The notes below the pieces were generated by a model. The model saw nothing but the letters and a program-made list of their open reading frames with translations, ran no database searches and was not told the DNA's origin. Positions 4,301 through 59,696 of a stretch of 64,000 nt of DNA are shown here, piece by piece. How positions within the stretch are numbered: position 1 is the stretch's first letter; the number at the start of each line of letters is the position of its first letter. A program made the position numbers and the translations under genes. The stretch comes from a virus, in IMG/VR virus record IMGVR_UViG_3300028569_000023, positions 22,036-86,035 of that record. The stretch is one strand, 5' to 3'.

Positions 4301-4728
4301 AACAATCAGTCGTTATTCTAGTAGGAACTCCGGGATCGGGAAAATCAACGCTCGCTAAAGAGTTCACCGATCATGTTCGTATTTCGCAGGATGTTCTAGG
4401 ATCTCGCCAGAATTGCATTAACGAGTGTCATAAGCATCTATCTTCGGGAAAGTCCGTGATTATCGATAGAACTAATATCAATCGTCAGCAGCGAGGATAC
4501 TGGACAAATATCGCTAATTACTATGGAATTACGAATGTTCATTGTATTGTCTTGGAATTAGATCCAGAAGAATGCATTCACCGTATTTCGCATAGAGTAG
4601 GACATGAAACTATCTCGGAACATTTAAGCATTGACGAGAAGAGAAAGATCGTGTATAATTTTCATAAATCGTTCGAGATGCCAAGTCTCAACGAAGGATT
4701 TAAAACAATCACGATTACAAAAGGATGA
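4297..4728 (+). CDS. P-loop kinase resembling polynucleotide 5'-kinase
   Basis: A 143-residue P-loop protein: Walker A GTPGSGKST lies at residues 10-18, and DRTNINRQQR near residue 60 matches the block in polynucleotide kinase and related RNA/DNA 5'-end kinases. A lid-type Arg segment (HRISHRVGHE) follows. It would transfer the ATP gamma-phosphate to a 5'-hydroxyl end. There is no phosphatase domain as in T4 Pnkp. An Rnl5-type RNA ligase lies 7 kb downstream, so the two could repair RNAs cut by host anticodon nucleases. ATG 4297 is preferred over a codon 6 nt earlier because it overlaps the upstream stop. Confidence 0.75.
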   Translation: MKQSVVILVGTPGSGKSTLAKEFTDHVRISQDVLGSRQNCINECHKHLSSGKSVIIDRTNINRQQRGYWTNIANYYGITNVHCIVLELDPEECIHRISHRVGHETISEHLSIDEKRKIVYNFHKSFEMPSLNEGFKTITITKG

Positions 4729-8663: not shown

Positions 8664-8906
8664 ATGACAAACATAATTCCTGTAGAGTACTTTAAATTCC
8701 GTTCAGAGTTCAACACTATGAGTTATACCGAGCTTATGGCAGTATGGGCTGAGCAGTTCGAAAGTGGTTATTCTTGGAAATCTAAGCCTATCCAACAGTA
8801 TAAGCTTAAAGCGATGTTTGAGACGATCAAAAGTCGCAGCACTAATCCTGCCGTAAAGGATTTCATCAATAACCAATCTAAAGCACTGAACTTCGGAGAT
8901 ATTTAA
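8664..8906 (+). CDS. 80-residue hypothetical protein upstream of DNA polymerase
   Basis: Begins directly after the TAG of the tiny peptide, with GAGGGG upstream. Predicted all-helical (SYTELMAVWAEQFESGYSW). The TAATG overlap with the DNA polymerase gene implies coupled translation. No family recognised. Confidence 0.6.
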   Translation: MTNIIPVEYFKFRSEFNTMSYTELMAVWAEQFESGYSWKSKPIQQYKLKAMFETIKSRSTNPAVKDFINNQSKALNFGDI

Positions 8907-10444
8907 TGTCTACTGACATCCAGCGCATTATTCACGGTAAAGCCGGAATTAAGCACGTTGTCGGCATGAAAGTCGAAGAAGACGTTGCTAATATCTGGAC
9001 CGAGAAAGATGGAGTTGTAGAACATTTACAACTGAAGAATAAGTTCTGGCTTTTATCGAATAAACGAATCGCTCCGAATTGGACCAAACTAGAGGGTAAT
9101 TTGTATTACCAGTACGGCGCTCAGTTTTCAAAACGTTTAGATTTCACTAGAGCGAAATACCAGCTATCAAAATACGACTGCTATTCGATTATGAACCCGG
9201 AAGAGTCTTTCATGGTCAAAGACGGAGTTCGCTATTTTCTAGATTTAAAACCTAAAGAAGTTTCTATTCTATCTTTCGATATCGAGACGACGGGACTTTC
9301 TGTAAATGAAAACTCCAAGCTTTTACTGATCTCAAACACCTATCGCTGTGGAGATCGTATTGTCAAGAAGATGTTCGATTATACGGATTATGAATCATGT
9401 GGAGCAATGACAGAAGCATGGTGCGATTGGGTTAGAGAAATGAACCCTGCTATTATTTGTGGTCATAACATCATTCAGTTCGACTTGAAGTATCTACTCG
9501 ATTGTGCTAATAGAGACGGTACGCGTTTTGCCATTGGACGTGACGACAGGGAAACGACGCTAGATAGTTACACTACTAAGTTCCGCGTAGACGGATCTCG
9601 TAGTCAAGAAATCAATAGGTACGTGATCTTCGGACGTGAACTTTGTGATACAATGCTTTTAGCATTACGTTACGATATTGCCACTAAGAAATACGATAGC
9701 TATGGACTAAAGCAAATCATTAAAACCGAGAAGTTAGAAAAGGTCGATAGGCAATTCTATGACGCTTCACTTATTCGAGTGAACTATAAGAATCCTACCG
9801 AATGGGCTAAAATCAGAGAGTATTGTAAAGATGATGCAGATGATGCTCTGGCTCTTTTCGATCTTATGATTCCTTCGGCTTTTTATTGTGCTCAATCTAT
9901 TCCTAAAACATTTGGTAATACCCTAACATCGGCAACCGGGGGACAGATCAATTCCATGCTTGTCGGTGCGTATTTACAGGATAAGCATTCAATTCCTAAA
10001 ACTACTGAAACAAACGGATACGAGGGTGCTTTATCGGGAGGTAATCCTGGAATATACAGTCACGCAATCAAGGCCGACGTGCAGAGTTTGTATCCGTCCA
10101 TCATGCGTAACTATAAGATAGGATTAGGAAATAAAGACCCTAAGGGTGTTTTTATACAACTGACCGAGTATTTTACAGTAGAGAGATTGAAGAATAAAAA
10201 ACTAGCAAAAGAGACTGGAGATAAGTACTACGATGATCTTCAAAGCTCACAAAAAGTGTTTGCGAATTCTTTATACGGGTTCTGTGCCGCGCCTGGGCTT
10301 TCGTTTAATGCGCCCCAGTCTGCGTCTTTTATTACTAAAACAGGTAGAGATATTCTACTTAAAGCTATACAATTTACTTGCGGTCTAACTTCTGAACAGT
10401 TACAATCGGATGTAGAGGAAGAAGAACCAGTAGATGCGTGCTAA
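8906..10444 (+). CDS. Family B DNA polymerase, N-terminal part (exonuclease and palm motifs A, B)
   Basis: A 512-residue protein carrying most of a family B replicative polymerase. The proofreading exonuclease motifs are FDIETTGL (ExoI, about 125), GHNIIQFDLKYL (ExoII, about 192) and YCKDDADDAL (ExoIII, about 310). The polymerase motif A is ADVQSLYPSIM (about 391) and motif B is KVFANSLYG (about 451). It stops shortly after TKTGRDILLKA, before motif C. That missing DTDS motif is in the separate gene at 10978. The two halves must associate, or be joined in some other way, to make an active enzyme. The last dozen residues (DVEEEEPVDAC) look like read-out of foreign DNA. Confidence 0.9.
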   Translation: MSTDIQRIIHGKAGIKHVVGMKVEEDVANIWTEKDGVVEHLQLKNKFWLLSNKRIAPNWTKLEGNLYYQYGAQFSKRLDFTRAKYQLSKYDCYSIMNPEESFMVKDGVRYFLDLKPKEVSILSFDIETTGLSVNENSKLLLISNTYRCGDRIVKKMFDYTDYESCGAMTEAWCDWVREMNPAIICGHNIIQFDLKYLLDCANRDGTRFAIGRDDRETTLDSYTTKFRVDGSRSQEINRYVIFGRELCDTMLLALRYDIATKKYDSYGLKQIIKTEKLEKVDRQFYDASLIRVNYKNPTEWAKIREYCKDDADDALALFDLMIPSAFYCAQSIPKTFGNTLTSATGGQINSMLVGAYLQDKHSIPKTTETNGYEGALSGGNPGIYSHAIKADVQSLYPSIMRNYKIGLGNKDPKGVFIQLTEYFTVERLKNKKLAKETGDKYYDDLQSSQKVFANSLYGFCAAPGLSFNAPQSASFITKTGRDILLKAIQFTCGLTSEQLQSDVEEEEPVDAC

Positions 10445-10445
10445 A

Positions 10446-10985
10446 ATGAAAGACTGGACAGGGTATAGATTCGGGAGATTAGTAGTCACTCGATTCGAAA
10501 AACATACAAAAGTTAATAGACGGTCGGTGTATAAATGGGAATGTATATGTGAATGCGGAGTCGTTAAACTATACGACATTAACGATCTAAAAAAAGGTTC
10601 AACTAATTCGTGTGGTTGTTTTAGGAGACAGAACCAGTCGCTAGTTAAAAGGGCACCGGAAGGTATAGCTGCTTTAAATTCGTTATACAAATCTTATAAA
10701 TTTAAATGCGCTAAAGATAGAAATTACGATTTCGAATTGACAATGGATGAATTTAAGATCCTAACAAAAAATAATTGTTATTACTGCGGAAAGATCCCTT
10801 CTCAAGTTAAAAAGAGTAAATGTTCTCAATATGTGTATAATGGGATAGATAGGGTTGATAACAGTTTAGGATATACTACCAGCAATACGGTAGCATGTTG
10901 TAAAGATTGTAATTCTAAAAAATCAGGAGTTACTCGTGATATAGTATTTAAACTATACGAGTATTTTATTAAACTAGATGGCTAA
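10446..10985 (+). CDS. HNH homing endonuclease inserted in the DNA polymerase gene
   Basis: Residues 1-65 form an N-terminal module common in phage HNH proteins (DWTGYRFGRLVV, then paired cysteines WECICECG and SCGCF). The C-terminal nuclease has YYCGKIPS and CCKDCNSKKSG zinc-binding pairs around NGIDRVDNSLGYT, where the D-N-x-x-GY block matches an HNH active site. It is a free-standing mobile gene lying exactly at the break of the polymerase. ATG 10446 follows the polymerase stop by one base; ATG 10434 is an alternative that overlaps it. The stop overlaps the ATG of the polymerase C-terminal gene (ATGGCTAA). No room remains for a self-splicing intron core. Confidence 0.85.
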   Translation: MKDWTGYRFGRLVVTRFEKHTKVNRRSVYKWECICECGVVKLYDINDLKKGSTNSCGCFRRQNQSLVKRAPEGIAALNSLYKSYKFKCAKDRNYDFELTMDEFKILTKNNCYYCGKIPSQVKKSKCSQYVYNGIDRVDNSLGYTTSNTVACCKDCNSKKSGVTRDIVFKLYEYFIKLDG

Positions 10986-11649
10986 TTTAAAACTCATAAA
11001 TTGGGACACAGATTCTATCACTGTATGTAAACCGGACGAAACTCCATTTTCTGAAGAAGAAATTTCTAAATTCTTTAACGATCTAAATTCTCAATTTCCA
11101 GATTTGATTTTATGGGACGATGACGGGTATTTCGAAACCGTCATTGTTCTTAAAGCTAAAAACTATGTACTATGGGATGGTAAAAAGAAGAAGATCAAAG
11201 GTTCTGCGCTTAAATCGTCTACTCGCGAACCTGCCGTTAGAGATTTTCTTAATGAGATCATTGATACAATGCTATATCGTAAATTCGATTACGAGAATAT
11301 CTACCATAAATACGTCAAAGAAGCTCTTGCTATCAAAGATCCTAAAAGATGGGCATCTAAAAAGACTATTGGTGATAAAATTCTTAATCCTCAACGTACT
11401 AATGAGCAAAAAATCCTTGACGCACTGCAAGGAACTGAGTATACTGAAGGGGATAAGGTTTACTTTTTCTACAAGAAAGATGGCAGTCTTTGTACCGTTC
11501 AAAACTTCGATGGCGAATACGACGAAGTTCTCCTTGTTAAGAAGTTATATAACGCGGTTAAGGTATTTAGTACAGTGTTACCAGTTAAAGATATATTTAT
11601 TAACTACTCGTTAAAGAAGAACCAGAAGCTATTGGATACATTTAAATGA
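10978..11649 (+). CDS. Family B DNA polymerase, C-terminal part (motif C and thumb)
   Basis: Residues 7-16 (INWDTDSITV) are polymerase motif C, with the second catalytic aspartate pair that the upstream half lacks. KAKNYVLWDGKKKKIKG near residue 58 matches the conserved KKRY-like region after motif C. The remaining 140 residues are a thumb-like helical region. Together with 8906-10444 the total is about 735 residues, a normal phage family B size. The start overlaps the HNH stop by 8 nt, so this half has gained its own initiation site. Without this piece the upstream half cannot catalyse. Confidence 0.9.
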   Translation: MANLKLINWDTDSITVCKPDETPFSEEEISKFFNDLNSQFPDLILWDDDGYFETVIVLKAKNYVLWDGKKKKIKGSALKSSTREPAVRDFLNEIIDTMLYRKFDYENIYHKYVKEALAIKDPKRWASKKTIGDKILNPQRTNEQKILDALQGTEYTEGDKVYFFYKKDGSLCTVQNFDGEYDEVLLVKKLYNAVKVFSTVLPVKDIFINYSLKKNQKLLDTFK

Positions 11650-13741: not shown

Positions 13742-14716
13742 ATGGAAAATAATCACTTTAAAGTTAAGAAAATATGGATGATTGATTCTCTTCAAGAAGG
13801 AGACGAACTCGACACTAGCGATTATCTAGTAACTACCGATAAAAAGCTAATTCAATTTGAGTTCATTGAAACTGAAAAACCGACACGCACTAAGACTGAA
13901 ATTAACCCAGGTGTGTACACCGCTAAATACAGTCAAGGGGGTTTGAAACTAATAGAAACTGAACTATCTAGCGATAGCTTGCTCGAATCACATGGTCCTA
14001 CTCAAGAAATCGTCGCAAAGATTGACTGTTTCTTCAGGAACCTCGATAAATACCGTCAATATGGTATTGAAACCCCTCGTCGTTCTATGCTATTGTATGG
14101 ACCTGCCGGAAGCGGGAAGTCTTCCACTATTTCGTCTGCCGTTAAGAAGTACACCGCTAATAATAGAACTGCTGTTCTCATTTGGAAAACAGACGTGGTT
14201 GAACCTGACGACATTAAATTCCTTATTCAGGATTTAGAATATATCAACGTTGATTGTTTATTCTTTATCGCTGAAGATATCGGCGGAGTGGAAGCAGAAG
14301 ATGCTCGTATTAATTCCAAAAGCTCACTTCTTAGTCTTTTGGATAATCAAGAGAAAACATTCAAGATTCCGACAATGATGATTTCAACTACAAACTTTCC
14401 TGAAATGTTCCTTGCGAATATCGCCAATCGTCCTCAACGTTTCGATGATAAGATTAAAGTTGGATATCCAGATTCTGCATTCAGACAAGCACTTTTAAAG
14501 CATATGGTAGGAGAGCAAACTACCGAAGATGATCTCCAGGAGATAGGTAATAAACGTTACGATTCGTTCACCCCGGCGCATATCCGGGAAGCAGTTATTC
14601 GTTCTGCTATTTACGAGAAGACGTTTAAAGATGTACTCACTGAGATGCTTAAAGAAATCGAACATTACAATAAAGCTTTTAGTGATAAAAAAGATATAGG
14701 AATAGGATTCCCATAA
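13742..14716 (+). CDS. AAA+ ATPase
   Basis: A 324-residue protein with one AAA+ module: Walker A YGPAGSGKSS about 125 residues in, Walker B-like CLFFIAEDIGG about 50 residues later, sensor-1-like MMISTTNF, and an Arg-finger region ANRPQRFDDK. The N-terminal 110 residues are a beta-rich domain of unknown type. AAA+ proteins of this shape remodel protein or DNA complexes; in phages they include clamp-loader-like, chaperone-like and proteasome-ATPase-like members. The start (MENNHFK) lies just downstream of the -10 box, which rules out the longer in-frame reading. Confidence 0.78.
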   Translation: MENNHFKVKKIWMIDSLQEGDELDTSDYLVTTDKKLIQFEFIETEKPTRTKTEINPGVYTAKYSQGGLKLIETELSSDSLLESHGPTQEIVAKIDCFFRNLDKYRQYGIETPRRSMLLYGPAGSGKSSTISSAVKKYTANNRTAVLIWKTDVVEPDDIKFLIQDLEYINVDCLFFIAEDIGGVEAEDARINSKSSLLSLLDNQEKTFKIPTMMISTTNFPEMFLANIANRPQRFDDKIKVGYPDSAFRQALLKHMVGEQTTEDDLQEIGNKRYDSFTPAHIREAVIRSAIYEKTFKDVLTEMLKEIEHYNKAFSDKKDIGIGFP

Positions 14717-16881: not shown

Positions 16882-17262
16882 ATGACATATCATGAATGGT
16901 CCGACGATTGGGGATATTGGAAGCTTCTAAACGAAGGTATTTGTTATATCGATAATGAACTTCGAAAAGCTCGAATTGGAGTCCACTCTAAAGAAAAGTT
17001 CGGAAGTGCGCGTTTTTCTTTGTACTTCTTCAACGGTCATCTTCACGATTTAACACATCCTGGTTATGTTTATTCTCAATATCCAAAATGGCTATGGAAA
17101 TTTGACGTAACGAAAAGTCCTTACATTTTTAAGTATTTAGGATTAACATTTATAATTAGACAATTACAATACATGTGGTTGAAAAGAGTTTTAACAAACG
17201 CGGAAGCTCTGTATCCTGAAATTAAAAAAGAATTACTTAGAGATTTAGTTGACTTTCTGTAA
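16882..17262 (+). CDS. Aromatic-rich hypothetical protein
   Basis: A 126-residue protein rich in Trp, Tyr and Phe (WSDDWGYWKLL; LYFFNGHLHDLTHPGYVY; YPKWLWKFD). The C-terminus is helical. No transmembrane span or known motif is clear. It stands between its own promoter and the promoter of the structured RNA, so it is a single-gene unit. Family not recognised. Confidence 0.6.
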   Translation: MTYHEWSDDWGYWKLLNEGICYIDNELRKARIGVHSKEKFGSARFSLYFFNGHLHDLTHPGYVYSQYPKWLWKFDVTKSPYIFKYLGLTFIIRQLQYMWLKRVLTNAEALYPEIKKELLRDLVDFL

Positions 17263-17276
17263 ATTTCTGATATAAT
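17249..17276 (+). promoter_or_regulatory. Sigma70-type promoter of the structured RNA
   Basis: TTGACT (17249-17254), 16-nt spacer, perfect TATAAT (17271-17276), partly overlapping the end of the upstream gene. The expected start of transcription, about 7 nt on, falls at A17283, the first base of the closing helix of the structured RNA. Confidence 0.75.
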
Positions 17277-17282
17277 AATGTA

Positions 17283-17450
17283 AGTACAGCGGCGTGAAAA
17301 GCTGAGAGCCCGGACATAGCTAAAAAACAGCGCTGGTCGTTGATGCTAATCTTGAGAGGGCTTTCTGGAGACACGCACCCTGATCGGGTGAGGAATTAGA
17401 TCAGTGAAGCCTCATAGTCTCGGTAGCGCGGGACCTGTACTACTTTTTTT
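17283..17450 (+). ncRNA. Structured non-coding RNA or long leader upstream of dNMP kinase
   Basis: About 160 nt without a plausible reading frame. AGTACAG (17283-17289) and CTGTACT (17435-17441) are exact complements and close the whole region; a run of seven T follows at 17444-17450. Internal helices readable by eye include GAGAGCCC with GGGCTTTC, CAGCG with CGTTG, CACCC with GGGTG, GAGAC with GTCTC and GAGG with CCTC. GCGTG near the 5' end could also pair with CACGC, possibly as a pseudoknot. The promoter places the transcription start at the first base of the outer helix. It could be a stand-alone RNA ending at the T-run, or a riboswitch-like leader controlling the kinase. It does not match tRNA, tmRNA, RNase P, 6S, SRP or a riboswitch I know. 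Confidence 0.72.
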
Positions 17451-17459
17451 AGGAGTTAT

Positions 17460-18152
17460 ATGACAATCTTGCTACTTTCTGGATATAAACAATCAGGCAA
17501 AGATACAGCGGCTAACTATTTAGTTCAAGACCGTGGGTTTAAACGAGCAGCATTTGCTGATTCGTTAAAGAATGATGTTTCTACGTTTTTCAATTTATCA
17601 CGTAAAGACATGGACGATCAATCGACAAAAGAAAGTCCGATTCTAGATCGCCCGGTTCAATCTTACGATCCGTTCTCAAAGCTAGTTAACGAGTTTTTGT
17701 TTAAGGAATTCAGAACACGAGACGGTAAACAGCCGTTGCATTTTAACTGGTTCGACGGTGAAATGGTTTCTGTCGAAACAGACGGTCAGAGTATTGAAAT
17801 TAAAGAGCTTTTCTGGACGCCGCGTGCTGCTTGTATTTTCGTAGGCTCAGTAGGTCGTAGCTTTAACGCAGACCATTGGGTCGATAGGGCATTAACCAAC
17901 GTTGGGGATATCAATAAACCAATCGGATTACAAAACGTTGTTGTATCTGATTTCCGCTACAAATCCGAATACAATCGAGTCATTGAATTGTTCGGTAAAG
18001 ACATTGTTAAGACGGTTCGTATTGATCGTTTTGATACTGTCAATTCCACAGATCCATCTGAACGTAATCTAGATGATTTCGAGTTCGATGTTCGAATTGA
18101 AAACAAAGGTACTCTACAAGAATTCATCGCTAAAATTAACGAGGTTGTATGA
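17460..18152 (+). CDS. Deoxynucleoside monophosphate kinase (T4 gp1-like)
   Basis: A 230-residue P-loop kinase: Walker A SGYKQSGKDTAA (residues 7-18), followed by AFADSLK, then TPRAACIFVGSVGR, and a VVVSDFRYKSEY strand-helix, as in T4 gp1-type dNMP kinases. These convert dNMPs to dNDPs for phage DNA synthesis and so complement ThyX. AGGAG lies 4 nt before the ATG, downstream of the T-run ending the structured RNA. This arrangement would let the RNA control the gene by termination or by masking the ribosome site. Confidence 0.85.
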   Translation: MTILLLSGYKQSGKDTAANYLVQDRGFKRAAFADSLKNDVSTFFNLSRKDMDDQSTKESPILDRPVQSYDPFSKLVNEFLFKEFRTRDGKQPLHFNWFDGEMVSVETDGQSIEIKELFWTPRAACIFVGSVGRSFNADHWVDRALTNVGDINKPIGLQNVVVSDFRYKSEYNRVIELFGKDIVKTVRIDRFDTVNSTDPSERNLDDFEFDVRIENKGTLQEFIAKINEVV

Positions 18153-19229: not shown

Positions 19230-19641
19230 GAACCTGAAAACGTTTATTATCCAGATACTACGTAGAGCGTCGTTAAAATGGCCCGCTCGTCAAGAGATTC
19301 TTGCGGCAAGTCGCGTAGAGCGCGGAGTTTACAAATGCGCAATGTGTAATAGCTTGTTCAAGAAAGAACAAGTACACGTTGATCATATTCATCCTGTAAT
19401 TCCTATTAATGGAACGTTCACTACGTTCGATGATTATATCGAAAGACTGTTCTGTGAATCCAGTGAACTCCAAGTGATATGTGGTACATGCCACAACTTG
19501 AAGAGTAAAATCGAAATAGAGATGCGTAAAACAGTTCGTAATACCAAAAAAGAAGAAGATAAAGCTAATGAAGTTGTTGAAGAATTCCAAGACTTTAGAA
19601 GTGCTAAAAGAAAAAAGATTGACAAAGAGAAGAAAGGCTAG
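19204..19641 (+). CDS. HNH endonuclease-like protein
   Basis: The core is YKCAMCN (about residue 43), VHVDHIHPV (the DH of the HNH motif), and LQVICGTCHNLKS with the second Cys pair and the N/H residues, which fits a zinc-stabilised HNH nuclease. Phage proteins like this serve either as homing endonucleases or as nicking partners of terminase. It begins at GTG 19204 inside the preceding gene, or at TTG 19216. The last third is a Lys/Glu-rich helix. The holin-like gene promoter lies across its end. Confidence 0.78.
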   Translation: MDIELAKPKNLKTFIIQILRRASLKWPARQEILAASRVERGVYKCAMCNSLFKKEQVHVDHIHPVIPINGTFTTFDDYIERLFCESSELQVICGTCHNLKSKIEIEMRKTVRNTKKEEDKANEVVEEFQDFRSAKRKKIDKEKKG

Positions 19642-19647
19642 TATAAT
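19619..19647 (+). promoter_or_regulatory. Consensus sigma70 promoter of the lysis cassette, predicted leaderless
   Basis: Perfect TTGACA (19619-19624), 17-nt spacer, perfect TATAAT (19642-19647), with the ATG starting 6 nt later. No Shine-Dalgarno sequence can fit. It is embedded in the last codons of the HNH gene. Confidence 0.85.
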
Positions 19648-19653
19648 AACCAC

Positions 19654-19881
19654 ATGAGATACTTGAGAGACCCTAAAACTAAACAACCGTCCGTAACGCT
19701 AACAGCGTTTGTTACAGGATTCGGAGTGGCAGCTTTGAAACTACTATTCTCCGGAGTTCAATTGACTGCTACTTATAAACTTCCAGAGTTTAACGGCGTA
19801 GACTTTGCTGCGGTCGTCGGAGCTTTGGGTGCAATCTACGCTATGAGACGTACACCTGGCGATACCGAGGAGAAACTATGA
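19654..19881 (+). CDS. Holin-like two-span membrane protein
   Basis: A 75-residue protein with two hydrophobic segments (VTLTAFVTGFGVAALKLLF and VDFAAVVGALGAIYAMR), a basic N-terminus and a charged C-terminus. Size and topology fit a class II holin or a small phage membrane protein. It is first gene of a unit led by a consensus promoter, and the next two genes look like a spanin set. The endolysin is far away at 59.3 kb. Holin function is inferred from topology and position only. Confidence 0.55.
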   Translation: MRYLRDPKTKQPSVTLTAFVTGFGVAALKLLFSGVQLTATYKLPEFNGVDFAAVVGALGAIYAMRRTPGDTEEKL

Positions 19882-26334: not shown

Positions 26335-27824
26335 TAGAATGTACCTACTTTTCCTAGATTATTTAAATACTGTTTATACGCATCGACTGAATTGAGATTA
26401 CCGTAGTTTGATGCTTTCTGACGCGTTTCATTGACTTTAGATCCAGCTAGGTCTAATGCTTCCTTTTGTAGCTTATTAGCCTGTACTATTAGACGGTCAC
26501 GTTCCTTTTTATCACCGGGATATCTCTTATCTAATTTAGCGTAGATATCTCTGAGTTCAGGTTTTTGACTAGCAAAGAACTCTCGGTCTCCTGGGTTTTT
26601 ATTATGTATTGCACTATTTTGTGCGGCTTTAGAATTGGTAATATAATGTTGTAAACGTTCTGCTTCTTTATTCAAGTTATTTTGTTCATTACGAGTACGG
26701 GATAAACCTTCGATACTTGATTTATCTTTTAGATCGGCAGTACTTTCTTTATATTGTCCAGCTTTATCATAAGCACCGACTTCTTTACCGGATAGTTTCT
26801 GAAGCGCTTTAAGTTGAGCGGCTTTTTCTGGACTCATGAAAGACGAAACGTCAGAAAGAACGTCTTGTCCTTGTTGTTGTAAGTTCATAATCTTAGCAAT
26901 TTGAGCACCTGCTTCAGGACCTGAAAGACCCGAATTCACTAGAGCGTCATACTGAGATGACATATAGTCAGTATCTTCTTTACTAAGACCTAATTGTGAT
27001 CCTATTTGTGAAATCTGTTCTTTACGACGATTATTATTGTTCAATCCTTTTTCATCAGGAGCAGAAAGAGCGCTTGCTGCTCCGGTCATTGCATTAGATT
27101 TAGCTAATTCGCGTTCTTGTGCTATTTTTTGAACACCTTCAGCTTCGGAGCTAATTCCAGTAATCCCTGTGTCTAAAGTATTCTTAGTTTGAGTACCGAA
27201 TGTTTGATTTTCTGCGGCAGCTTGTTTAGCGGCACCTTCAGCTTGACCGATTTGTTGTTCAACTCCGCGAGATAGACCGCGTAATGCTCCAGATGCGGCT
27301 TGGATACGTTTAGCGTCTTGACCAAGAAGGAGAGCATCGGTGCGTTGAGTACCTTGTGTGTATTTAGAAGTAGGATTGAATTGCTGAAGAAGACCATATC
27401 GGCCTTGTTCAGTATTAGAACCACGAGCTAGTGTGTTAGCACGTTCTGCTTCATTTTTAAGTTCATCTTGATTTCGTAGGGTCTTAGGACCTTGATATGT
27501 GCCCGAACTAAAGCGGCTGATAGCAGCTACGTCCTGATCATCGACATTACCAGTCGCTGCCTTACCGATGATAGCATCACGTTGAGCGGCTTGTTCTTGT
27601 CCGAAAGCGTTTTGTTTTAAGTCTTGATTGAAACGATCAGCAGCATTAGCTGTTGCTTGTTGGATATTTTGTCCAGTTTGTTGAAGACTACCAGCGACAG
27701 CGGAACCTAATTGATTACCTTTATTGGCATCAATTACTTTATTTAAATTAGTAAACCCTGAACCTTTTTGCTTTTGTTTACGAGGATCTGAAGAACCTGG
27801 GTTTTGAGGAGGCATAATAGGCAT
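26334..27824 (-). CDS. Gln/Asn-rich internal virion-type protein (496 aa)
   Basis: First gene downstream of the 27846-27857 late promoter. Rich in Gln, Ala and Asn and predicted helical (GQNIQQATANAADRFNQDL). A ribosome site AAGGA lies 12 nt before the chosen ATG; a second ATG is available three codons in. No enzymatic motif. Function inferred from context. Confidence 0.6.
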   Translation of the reverse strand: MPIMPPQNPGSSDPRKQKQKGSGFTNLNKVIDANKGNQLGSAVAGSLQQTGQNIQQATANAADRFNQDLKQNAFGQEQAAQRDAIIGKAATGNVDDQDVAAISRFSSGTYQGPKTLRNQDELKNEAERANTLARGSNTEQGRYGLLQQFNPTSKYTQGTQRTDALLLGQDAKRIQAASGALRGLSRGVEQQIGQAEGAAKQAAAENQTFGTQTKNTLDTGITGISSEAEGVQKIAQERELAKSNAMTGAASALSAPDEKGLNNNNRRKEQISQIGSQLGLSKEDTDYMSSQYDALVNSGLSGPEAGAQIAKIMNLQQQGQDVLSDVSSFMSPEKAAQLKALQKLSGKEVGAYDKAGQYKESTADLKDKSSIEGLSRTRNEQNNLNKEAERLQHYITNSKAAQNSAIHNKNPGDREFFASQKPELRDIYAKLDKRYPGDKKERDRLIVQANKLQKEALDLAGSKVNETRQKASNYGNLNSVDAYKQYLNNLGKVGTF

Positions 27825-27845
27825 TGTTCAATAATATCCTTATCT

Positions 27846-27857
27846 TATAGTTGTTAA
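27846..27857 (-). promoter_or_regulatory. Late-promoter element TTAACAACTATA
   Basis: Exact match to the recurring element, in the 39-nt gap between two virion genes, ending 21 nt before the ATG at 27824. The leader contains AAGGA. It would drive the internal virion protein genes. Confidence 0.75.
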
Positions 27858-27863
27858 CTCGCG

Positions 27864-28289
27864 TTAGTTCCAAATCACTAGTTTTAAACGGTATTTTTGA
27901 TTTGCTTGTAAACCGCTGATATTATTAAGCTGGAATTTACCTTGACTGTTTAGAGTCCAGGTTACAAACGGTTGGGCCGTAGGATAAATGCTTGAATTAT
28001 CAAGGTTTGTGGCATTTATTACCGAACAACCGATAATAGGAAGCTGAGTATCAGGCGTTACTGTAATAGTCGTGGTAGGCTTACCGTTCGAATCCACAAT
28101 AACATCCACGTCTTTAACAGTTGATGCCAGATTATCGGCAAGAGTGATCTTTTTCTTTAGAGCTTCATATAGAATCTCAAAGTTGATGTTTACAGTACTA
28201 GCAAGAGCATCAGCGAAATCCTGATACTCTTTTTGAAAGTCTGTTTTGTAGAGGCGACGAAATCCAGGGATTAAAATTTGACTACCCAT
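27864..28289 (-). CDS. Small tail-associated protein (141 aa)
   Basis: Follows the 1706-residue tail protein by 19 nt. Helical N-terminus (YKTDFQKEYQDFADALAST) and a beta-rich C-terminal half (TTTITVTPDTQLPIIGCSV). Probably a virion component; no family recognised. Confidence 0.55.
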   Translation of the reverse strand: MGSQILIPGFRRLYKTDFQKEYQDFADALASTVNINFEILYEALKKKITLADNLASTVKDVDVIVDSNGKPTTTITVTPDTQLPIIGCSVINATNLDNSSIYPTAQPFVTWTLNSQGKFQLNNISGLQANQKYRLKLVIWN

Positions 28290-36544: not shown

Positions 36545-36550
36545 AGACGT

Positions 36551-36579
36551 AGTATATACGGTCTGAATGGTATTGTCAA
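36551..36579 (-). promoter_or_regulatory. Consensus sigma70 promoter of the thioredoxin-like gene
   Basis: On the minus strand TTGACA (36579-36574), 17-nt spacer, TATACT (36556-36551). The ATG begins 6 nt after the -10 box, so the mRNA would start at or beside the start codon. Confidence 0.82.
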
Positions 36580-36581
36580 GA

Positions 36582-36618
36582 ATAAAAGCGAAGGTCCGAA
36601 CGTTTTACCGTCCGGACC
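36582..36618 (-). terminator. Rho-independent terminator after the fibre gene
   Basis: GGTCCGGACG and CGTTCGGACC pair over 10 bp around a 6-nt loop (36593-36618), then a T-rich stretch (TTCGCTTTTATTCTT) on the minus strand. It separates the fibre gene from the promoter of the thioredoxin-like gene. Confidence 0.85.
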
Positions 36619-36682
36619 TGTATTTAACTCAGCGAGACGAACGAAGTGTCGCAGCTAGCTAGGAATGCGGAGAGGAGGGAGA

Positions 36683-58803: not shown

Positions 58804-59110
58804 TAGATCCTCCGTTTCGTTGAAGTTTCATGCTTGAAATGTAAGAACGGTTTTCGTTTATAACTAAATCCTGAGCAGCTAGACGTGTTTCTAATTGAAC
58901 TTCTAGTTTTTTCACGGATTCTTCTGATTTATTTAAGAGTTGACGGATTTCATCTAGTTTTTTATCGTTACTTTTATGTTCATATAGATATGCAATAAGA
59001 CCGACGACAATGCCGAATCCTACTTCTTGCCAATTTACACCTAAAATCAGAGACTTAAGGAAGAAAAGCAAAAAGGCTACTAGTGGCAGATGCTTAAGTT
59101 GAAGTTTCAT
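58787..59110 (-). CDS. Membrane-anchored coiled-coil protein (107 aa)
   Basis: Two adjacent hydrophobic N-terminal segments (LPLVAFLLFFLKSLILG; VGFGIVVGLIAYLYE) followed by a coiled coil (LDEIRQLLNKSEESVKKLE). First gene of the terminase operon, overlapping the small terminase gene by 17 nt. Such proteins can act as lysis or injection accessory factors; function not established. Confidence 0.55.
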   Translation of the reverse strand: MKLQLKHLPLVAFLLFFLKSLILGVNWQEVGFGIVVGLIAYLYEHKSNDKKLDEIRQLLNKSEESVKKLEVQLETRLAAQDLVINENRSYISSMKLQRNGGSNGLGR

Positions 59111-59214
59111 AAATGTCCTAACTATTTAAAATCAAAGATATATTTAGCGTTAACCACTTTTATGTTAATTGTCTTACTAAAGACTGTTGGAATTGCTATT
59201 TCTATCCTTACTTC

Positions 59215-59226
59215 TATAGTTGTTAA
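59215..59226 (-). promoter_or_regulatory. Late-promoter element of the terminase operon
   Basis: Exact TTAACAACTATA followed by GAAGTAAGG, matching the SP6-type ACTATAGAAG sequence at the start site. About 105 nt of leader follow before ATG 59110; the leader holds no ATG-initiated frame. It diverges from the endolysin element 37 nt away. Confidence 0.78.
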
Positions 59227-59262
59227 AGAATTAAAACCTTGTTTTTATTACGTAATATAGAA

Positions 59263-59273
59263 TAACAACTATA
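59263..59273 (+). promoter_or_regulatory. Late-promoter element TAACAACTATA of the endolysin
   Basis: Exact core on the plus strand, diverging from the terminase element. The start codon follows after only 3 nt, so transcription beginning at its 3' edge would produce a leaderless endolysin mRNA. Confidence 0.75.
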
Positions 59274-59276
59274 ATT

Positions 59277-59696
59277 ATGCTCACTTTAAAACGGTATCTA
59301 ACCGCCGATAATAAATACCCAGACCGTGAAACTCATAAAGAACTCAACGATGAGATTAAAAAGAACGCTGAAGATCTCTTGAAGAGAGTGAACGCTCTAC
59401 TCGCTGATCTAGGTATCGATAAAGTAGCAGTTAGTTCCGGGTTTAGACCTTCTGGTGTGAACGCTAACACTCCAGGTTCTGCTAAAAAATCCGCCCACAT
59501 GAGAGGGTCTGCTATCGATCTGTCAGATGATAAGAGTCAAACTATTTGTAAGAAAATATTAGCTAAGCCTGAGCTTTTAAAGAAACATGGACTGTGGATG
59601 GAAGATCCTGCGCGCACTATTGGGAAGAATACAAACTGGACACACTTAGATACAGTGGTTCGTAAAGATCGTCCTATTCAAGTATTCAAACCCTAA
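59277..59696 (+). CDS. Endolysin, peptidase M15-like
   Basis: A 139-residue protein with an M15-type zinc peptidase layout: SSGFRPSGVNA (about residue 58), HMRGSAIDLSD (about 78-88; His and Asp ligands), and NTNWTHLDTV (about 122-131; catalytic and third ligand). This family cuts peptide cross-links of peptidoglycan. There is no signal peptide, so export would depend on a holin. It is the only plus-strand gene in this region, between two divergent minus-strand units, and has a late element immediately upstream but no ribosome site. Confidence 0.85.
   Translation: MLTLKRYLTADNKYPDRETHKELNDEIKKNAEDLLKRVNALLADLGIDKVAVSSGFRPSGVNANTPGSAKKSAHMRGSAIDLSDDKSQTICKKILAKPELLKKHGLWMEDPARTIGKNTNWTHLDTVVRKDRPIQVFKP

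What the first reader, a model, noticed from the sequence alone, without database searches (positions are those of the whole stretch)
17249..17462. Promoter-coupled structured RNA upstream of the dNMP kinase
A perfect sigma70 promoter starts transcription at the first base of a 7-bp outer helix that closes a region of about 160 nt. The inside has at least five complementary segments and a possible pseudoknot. A run of seven T follows, then the kinase ribosome site. It fits no RNA family I know. It may be a stand-alone regulatory RNA or a ligand-sensing leader for nucleotide metabolism.
Basis: partly seen in the sequence, partly recalled or inferred. Interest (0 to 1): 0.7.

Follow-up and report, generated by a model that had tools for sequence, protein, structure and literature searches.

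The report
New phage and bacterial RNA family
The spot next to the kinase gene encodes a member of a previously uncatalogued folded RNA, found in dozens of unrelated phages (including isolated Pseudomonas phages) and in the chromosomes of one order of bacteria, so it is a real conserved molecule whose job is still unknown.

Summary
Window 17283-17441 is a 159-nt noncoding RNA with a strong promoter (17249-17276) and U7 after its closing helix. Single-sequence folding was only weakly significant (z -1.75), and nothing in Rfam 15 matches. Comparison then showed that it belongs to an RNA family. A core, [P1]CGGCGUGRAAGCU-P3-YUGGAGACACGC...[P5 hairpin, loop NGUMGCRN][P1'], was found in about 33 IMG/VR contigs by sequence motif. 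The helices covary strongly: 17 of 22 pairs change on both sides, 96.5% of cells pair, 0 of 500 shuffles reach the score. A covariance model found it in six isolated phages (Pseudomonas phi297, D14H, Persinger, PotUPM1, Orimi01; Ochrobactrum POI1126) and in 29 of 76 genomes of one bacterial order, often after the same treY-like gene. Neighbouring genes are not conserved between phages, so a leader regulating the dNMP kinase is not supported; a stand-alone RNA acting in trans fits best. The family's existence is near certain, trans action is likely, and the molecular function is unknown. Ro60/Y RNA, tRNA/tmRNA and Rfam membership were tested and not met.

The parts
17249..17276 (+). sigma70 promoter: TTGACT-16 nt-TATAAT with extended -10 (TG at 17268-17269)
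   Evidence: -10 ends 6 nt before P1
17283..17441 (+). the structured RNA (P1 to P1', 159 nt)
   Evidence: R2 model 91 bits (the window is a training member)
17283..17289 (+). P1, 5' strand AGUACAG
   Evidence: pairs with 17435-17441; covaries in 30 members
17290..17296 (+). conserved core CGGCGUG; GCGUG 17292-17296 is the 5' strand of P2
   Evidence: identical in all 30 members, but the scan pattern demanded it
17297..17303 (+). conserved internal-loop strand AAAAGCU (family RRAAGCU)
   Evidence: not part of the scan pattern
17304..17308 (+). P3, 5' strand GAGAG (helix can extend to 17311)
   Evidence: pairs with CUUUC 17361-17365; changes on both sides at all 5 pairs in the family
17361..17365 (+). 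P3, 3' strand CUUUC
17366..17376 (+). conserved core UGGAGACACGC; CACGC 17372-17376 is the 3' strand of P2
17377..17413 (+). variable P4 region: hairpin ACCC-UGAUC-GGGU and hairpin GAGG...CCUC
   Evidence: MFE fold; region varies in length and sequence in the family
17417..17434 (+). P5 hairpin GUCUC-GGUAGCGC-GGGAC, loop of the conserved type NGUMGCRN
   Evidence: changes on both sides at all 5 stem pairs; loop conserved
17435..17441 (+). P1, 3' strand CUGUACU, directly after P5
17444..17450 (+). U7 tract after P1'; possible terminator/3' end
   Evidence: T runs of 4 or more follow P1' in 15 of 31 members against 5% of random places
17451..17455 (+). AGGAG ribosome site of the dNMP kinase gene (17460-18152); not part of the RNA family

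Best explanation
The region encodes one member of a new, widely distributed family of structured noncoding RNAs (about 150-280 nt) carried by tailed phages and, as a single chromosomal locus, by one order of bacteria. SHOWN by comparison: pairing of the two ends (P1), P3 and the 3' hairpin P5, and a nearly invariant core (CGG, the RRAAGC / UGGAGA loop strands around P2, and the NGUMGCRN hairpin loop). INFERRED: it is made as a discrete RNA from its own promoter, or by processing or termination at the U-tract after P1'. INFERRED: it acts in trans as a stable RNA or RNA-protein particle; the invariant core would be the binding site for a conserved host factor (or another invariant target), and the lineage-specific P3 and P4 arms are adaptors. 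In the window it sits before the dNMP kinase by position only. Estimated likelihoods: real conserved RNA family 0.98; made as a stand-alone RNA 0.75; acts in trans rather than on the adjacent gene 0.65; its partner and role are unknown.
For: Scan of IMG/VR with CGGCGTGN{61,91}TGGAGACACGC gave 60 contigs. About 32 loci that also carry the RRAAGC-type continuation (not in the pattern) nearly all have the NGT[AC]GC[GA] hairpin with its stem, followed directly by P1', with P1 of 6 or more contiguous pairs in 30 of 32; the remaining random-looking hits have neither. Covariation over 30 members: 17 of 22 pairs changed on both sides, 96.5% of cells paired, score 0.666 against 0.173 in shuffles (0/500) and at most 0.123 when slid. 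The model built from them finds kin phages G073, G058, G070 and G068, six isolate phages at 41-66 bits and 29 of 76 genomes of one bacterial order. No conserved gene neighbour among phages. In phage POI1126 it lies between two tRNA genes; many of the 20 examined bacterial loci follow the same treY-like gene family (12-member cluster). Promoters scoring 9 or more of 12 end just before P1 in 7 of 31 members against 3.5% of random places; T runs of 4 or more just after P1' in 15 of 31 against 5%.
Against: No transcript has been seen; expression and 3' end are inferred. In Pseudomonas phages phi297, D14H and PotUPM1 it lies between a regulator gene and an early operon, which would also fit a cis-acting antitermination element. 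About half the members lack an obvious U-tract and most lack a consensus promoter. P2 never varies, partly because the scan pattern required it, so it has no covariation support of its own. Members were found through exact core strings, so the apparent invariance of the core is inflated.
Confidence: 0.65

Rival explanations
1. A cis-acting RNA at the start of an operon that controls transcription of what follows: an attenuator or antiterminator in which P1 plus the U-tract terminates unless the core binds a factor or a ligand, comparable to the put RNAs of phage HK022.
For: Own promoter just upstream and U7 just after P1' in the window; a local hairpin 17422-17444 that excludes P1 and ends at the U-tract; in phi297, D14H and PotUPM1 it precedes early operons; the ribosome site follows directly in many members.
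Against: The alternative hairpin is weak (-6.6 kcal/mol) and 17 of 100 shuffles do as well. The RNA also lies after a treY-like gene in bacteria, between tRNA genes in POI1126 and beside many unrelated genes, with no conserved downstream gene.
Confidence: 0.2
2. A bacterial Y-RNA-like partner of a Ro60/TROVE protein: paired ends with a protein-binding core, and a tRNA-like arm.
For: TROVE proteins are encoded in kin phages G070 and G073, which carry the RNA; 4 of 31 members have a T-loop-like arm in the P3 domain, one of them read as tRNA-Ser by ARAGORN at a relaxed setting.
Against: Only 2 of 34 carrying records have a TROVE protein over the cut-off, and it is not adjacent to the RNA; no Rfam family matches.
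Confidence: 0.07
3. A new self-cleaving or otherwise catalytic RNA: an invariant junction core with variable arms.
For: Strongly conserved unpaired core nucleotides at a multi-helix junction.
Against: No match to known ribozymes in Rfam; no direct evidence either way.
Confidence: 0.06

Closest known systems
ROOL and GOLLD ornate RNAs (PMC12286853)
   Same: structured noncoding RNAs of unknown function; phage carriage and independence from neighbouring genes are from memory for these two families
   Different: several times shorter here (150-280 nt), different conserved core; no Rfam family matched any member tested
Bacterial Y RNAs (Y RNA / YrlA; from memory, Chen et al. 2014)
   Same: ends pair; conserved stem core; tRNA-like arm in a few members; found in phages and bacteria
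   Different: no Ro60 gene over the cut-off in 32 of 34 records; no Rfam match; most members have no recognisable tRNA-like arm
HK022 put antitermination RNAs (from memory)
   Same: structured RNA right after a strong promoter and before early genes in some phages (window, phi297, PotUPM1)
   Different: larger, different core, and also found away from early operons, between tRNA genes and in bacterial chromosomes
phi29 packaging RNA, pRNA (from memory)
   Same: phage RNA of about 160-170 nt with paired ends
   Different: no phi29-type packaging context here (TerL phage); no Rfam match; present in bacterial chromosomes
Riboswitches and T-box leaders
   Same: a structured region upstream of a metabolic gene and a U-tract in the window
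   Different: no conserved downstream gene, no Rfam match; the kinase of kin phage L007 lacks the RNA

Membership tests
Any Rfam 15 family | covariance-model match at the gathering score | tested here: not met
   window, 18 canonical member loci, bacterial locus L339, isolate phages: no hit at the gathering score over the RNA itself; tRNA hits only beside it
Bacterial Y RNA (Ro60 partner) | a Ro60/TROVE gene in or near the carrying locus | tested here: not met
   2 of 34 carrying records over the Pfam cut-off, not adjacent; several records are fragments
Bacterial Y RNA (Ro60 partner) | tRNA-like domain | tested here: inconclusive
   T-loop-like arms in 4 of 31 members; ARAGORN finds none at the default setting and one at a relaxed setting
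tRNA / tmRNA | ARAGORN detection | tested here: not met
   (29 members, default setting: none)
Metabolite riboswitch of nucleotide genes | consistent association with a gene class downstream | tested here: not met
   flanking genes of 28 loci show no recurrent family; dNMP kinase in L007 without the RNA
Metabolite riboswitch of nucleotide genes | ligand binding | not testable with these tools
   needs in-line probing
Put-type antiterminator | suppresses termination in cis | not testable with these tools
   needs a reporter assay; position fits in some phages only
The new family described here | P1-CGG-P2/P3 core-P5 hairpin with NGUMGCRN loop-P1' with covariation | tested here: met

The most novel reading that the evidence does not exclude
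A previously undescribed stand-alone RNA class shared by tailed phages of several lineages and by one bacterial order: phages carry copies of, or gave rise to, a conserved host RNA whose invariant core engages a conserved cellular target.
Probability: 0.6. Interest if true: 0.9.

Novelty: categorically new. Interest (0 to 1): 0.8.

Why it matters
New structured RNA classes with a conserved core are rare and have often turned out to be ribozymes, riboswitches or cores of RNA-protein machines. This one has strong covariation, is absent from Rfam 15, occurs across phage lineages and in chromosomes of a bacterial order, and is present in isolated Pseudomonas aeruginosa phages (phi297, D14H, Persinger), so its function can be tested directly. 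The family boundaries given here let others annotate it; in phi297 and Orimi01 predicted protein genes overlap it and are probably spurious.

Tried and rejected
(1) Ordinary homology: blastn of the region, and a single-sequence covariance model with default filters, found nothing in phages or kin; this was a sensitivity failure, overcome by an unfiltered search and a descriptor scan. (2) Kinase leader: rejected because L007 has the kinase without the RNA and neighbours vary. (3) A shared RURGYURA motif linking other structured gaps of kin phages (G058 13.8 kb, G064): not pursued; these look like different RNAs. (4) Terminator hairpin 17422-17444 as a switch: 17% of shuffles do as well. (5) An exact 17-mer of the P4 region in bacterial genomes: 5 hits, about 30 expected by chance; uninformative, and it spent the only genome-contig scan. 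(6) Pattern TGATC..GAGGAATTAGATCA in IMG/VR: none; it lies in the variable region. (7) Ro60, tRNA and tmRNA hypotheses: tested, not met. (8) A literature search with the core string gave only primer-like chance matches; searches for phage structured RNAs did not find this family, but the library is incomplete and I did not read the large candidate lists. (9) Phylum of a Desulfobacterales genome: 0 of 395 genomes. (10) E. coli genomes: no match to the P1-P2 segment of the PotUPM1 member. (11) blastn with one canonical member found no isolate phage; the isolates were found only with the bacterial member.

Full report
Observation. A near-consensus promoter with an extended -10 (17249-17276, 11 of 12 matches) ends 6 nt before the 7-bp helix 17283-17289/17435-17441. 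This is followed by U7 (17444-17450), AGGAG and the dNMP kinase ATG at 17460. The kinase annotation is right (phrog_139, E 5e-39; Pfam DNMK). The element has 52% G+C in a 40% genome and is among the most stable 164-nt windows (5th of 3192), but against dinucleotide shuffles its z-score is only -1.75. Taken alone it would not be convincing. Rfam 15 has no match.

Origin. The window is part of an 86-kb IMG/VR record of a tailed phage. Among sequenced phages its TerL and capsid are closest to a phage of Silvanigrella aquatica, so a host related to that bacterium is plausible. A portal-based search found a family of kin phages of about 74-88 kb.

Finding homologues. Standard searches failed. An unfiltered search with a single-sequence covariance model gave one hit, E 0.002, in kin phage G058. 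A descriptor taken from the two (P1, then CGG; 5-bp hairpin with an 8-nt GGTAGCGN-like loop directly before P1') was scanned over the held kin sequences. Its top hits were G058, G070 and the window, with G073 fifth. G070 lies at the corresponding place in the gene order, between the AAA ATPase and the HNH gene, and had already stood out as a structured gap with paired ends. G073 shares long strings with the window, CGGCGUGRAAAGCU and CUGGAGACACGCA.

The family. The pattern CGGCGTGN{61,91}TGGAGACACGC in IMG/VR gave 60 contigs. Selecting by sequence only, about 32 loci that continue RRAAGC after CGGCGTG nearly all have the NGT[AC]GC[GA]N loop with its stem; P1 has 6 or more contiguous pairs in 30 of 32. 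The other hits have no such hairpin. The P1 sequences differ almost everywhere. In the 30-member alignment A7, P1, P3 and P5 show changes on both sides at all 17 of their pairs, 96.5% of cells pair, and the covariation score is 0.666 against 0.173 +/- 0.015 in shuffles (0/500) and at most 0.123 when slid. P2 does not vary, in part because the scan demanded it. Mild caution: A7 rows were chosen with a preference for loops giving at least 4 of 7 P1 pairs where more than one loop match was possible; one search is the test free of that choice. Lengths range from 152 to 278 nt.

Distribution. Model R2 scores G073 101 bits, window 91, G058 4529-4720 39.8, G070 32.3 and G068 28.8 (the first two are training members). 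It also scores the isolate phages phi297 66, POI1126 62, PotUPM1 58, D14H 52, Orimi01 51 and Persinger 41; in several of them P3 is reduced to a short loop such as GCGUG-GAAAGCAGA-CACGC. Among bacterial genomes it rang in 1 of 399 of one phylum, 0 of 395 of another, 4 of 385 of the class of the first hit and 29 of 76 of its order. In the 20 bacterial loci examined the gene just upstream most often belongs to one cluster of 12, which I read as treY-like (malto-oligosyltrehalose synthase) from its sequence; no Pfam hit was obtained for the fragment tested. The RNAs are closely similar to each other.

Context and function. The genes beside the RNA are not conserved between phages. It occurs upstream of a dNMP kinase (window), next to a kinase-like and an RNA-ligase-like gene (L320, read from sequence), between tRNA genes (POI1126), near an integrase (Persinger), between a regulator and an early operon (phi297, D14H, PotUPM1) and in chromosomes. 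Consensus-like promoters end just upstream in 7 of 31 members (3.5% expected) and T runs of 4 or more follow P1' in 15 of 31 (5% expected). I conclude that it is most likely a stand-alone RNA acting in trans. The invariant unpaired core suggests one conserved binding partner. That partner, and the biological role, are not known. The loop strands GAA / AGA flanking P2 could form tandem sheared G-A pairs (inference from sequence).

Known families. No Rfam family matches any member tested at its gathering score. Y RNAs are the nearest idea by general design, because some members carry tRNA-like arms and two kin phages encode a TROVE protein; the association fails in 32 of 34 records. ROOL and GOLLD (PMC12286853) are the nearest in kind (ornate noncoding RNAs), not in sequence. 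The literature available here gave no earlier description, but most subscription papers and supplementary lists were not searchable, so prior description elsewhere cannot be excluded; 'categorically new' means new relative to Rfam 15 and the held literature.

Verdict. Observation confirmed; interpretation partly supported (structured, stand-alone, not a known family: yes; nucleotide-metabolism leader: no). New RNA family, function open, directly testable in isolated Pseudomonas phages.

Noticed in passing
window 8906-11649 (+): Family B DNA polymerase is split: exonuclease/N part 8906-10444, C part 10978-11649 (starts near the DTDS motif), with an HNH-like ORF 10434-10985 between them; kin L010 has the same split without the HNH ORF.
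   Followed up: no
L215:19408-19476 (-), G052 59037-59476: Type II hammerhead ribozyme (Rfam Hammerhead_II, 42.5 bits) at the 5' end of a 440-nt structured noncoding stretch in a kin phage.
   Followed up: partly
G072 27590-28003; G030 9621-9872; G058 13826-14000; G064 19246-19410; L010 7537-7661: Other GC-rich, strongly folded noncoding gaps in kin phages with no sequence similarity to each other or to this RNA; G058 13.8 kb also ends in T7 plus AGGAG plus ATG.
   Followed up: partly
L217:4420-4515 and 4529-4720: Two adjacent copies in G058: a short 96-nt one lacking the P2/P3 core strings, and a full-length one with an AG insertion after P1.
   Followed up: partly
L288, L292, L296, L332 (P3 domain): T-loop-like tRNA arms inside the RNA in four members; L288 is read as tRNA-Ser by ARAGORN at a relaxed threshold.
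   Followed up: partly
G070:3225-4229, G073:10618-11481: TROVE (Ro60) proteins encoded by two kin phages that carry the RNA.
   Followed up: no
L364 1793-2266; L366 905-1162: Annotated hypothetical CDSs in phages Orimi01 and phi297 overlap the RNA and are probably spurious.
   Followed up: no
window 36545-36682 (-): Strong intrinsic-terminator-like hairpin (GGUCCGGACGG...UUCGGACC) followed by a near-consensus promoter TTGACA-17-TATACT in the late gene region.
   Followed up: no
window 19619-19654 (+): Perfect TTGACA-17-TATAAT promoter with an ATG 7 nt downstream, so that gene would have an almost leaderless transcript.
   Followed up: no
window 59080-59307: Intergenic region conserved at about 67% with kin phages G035, G031 and G026.
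   Followed up: no
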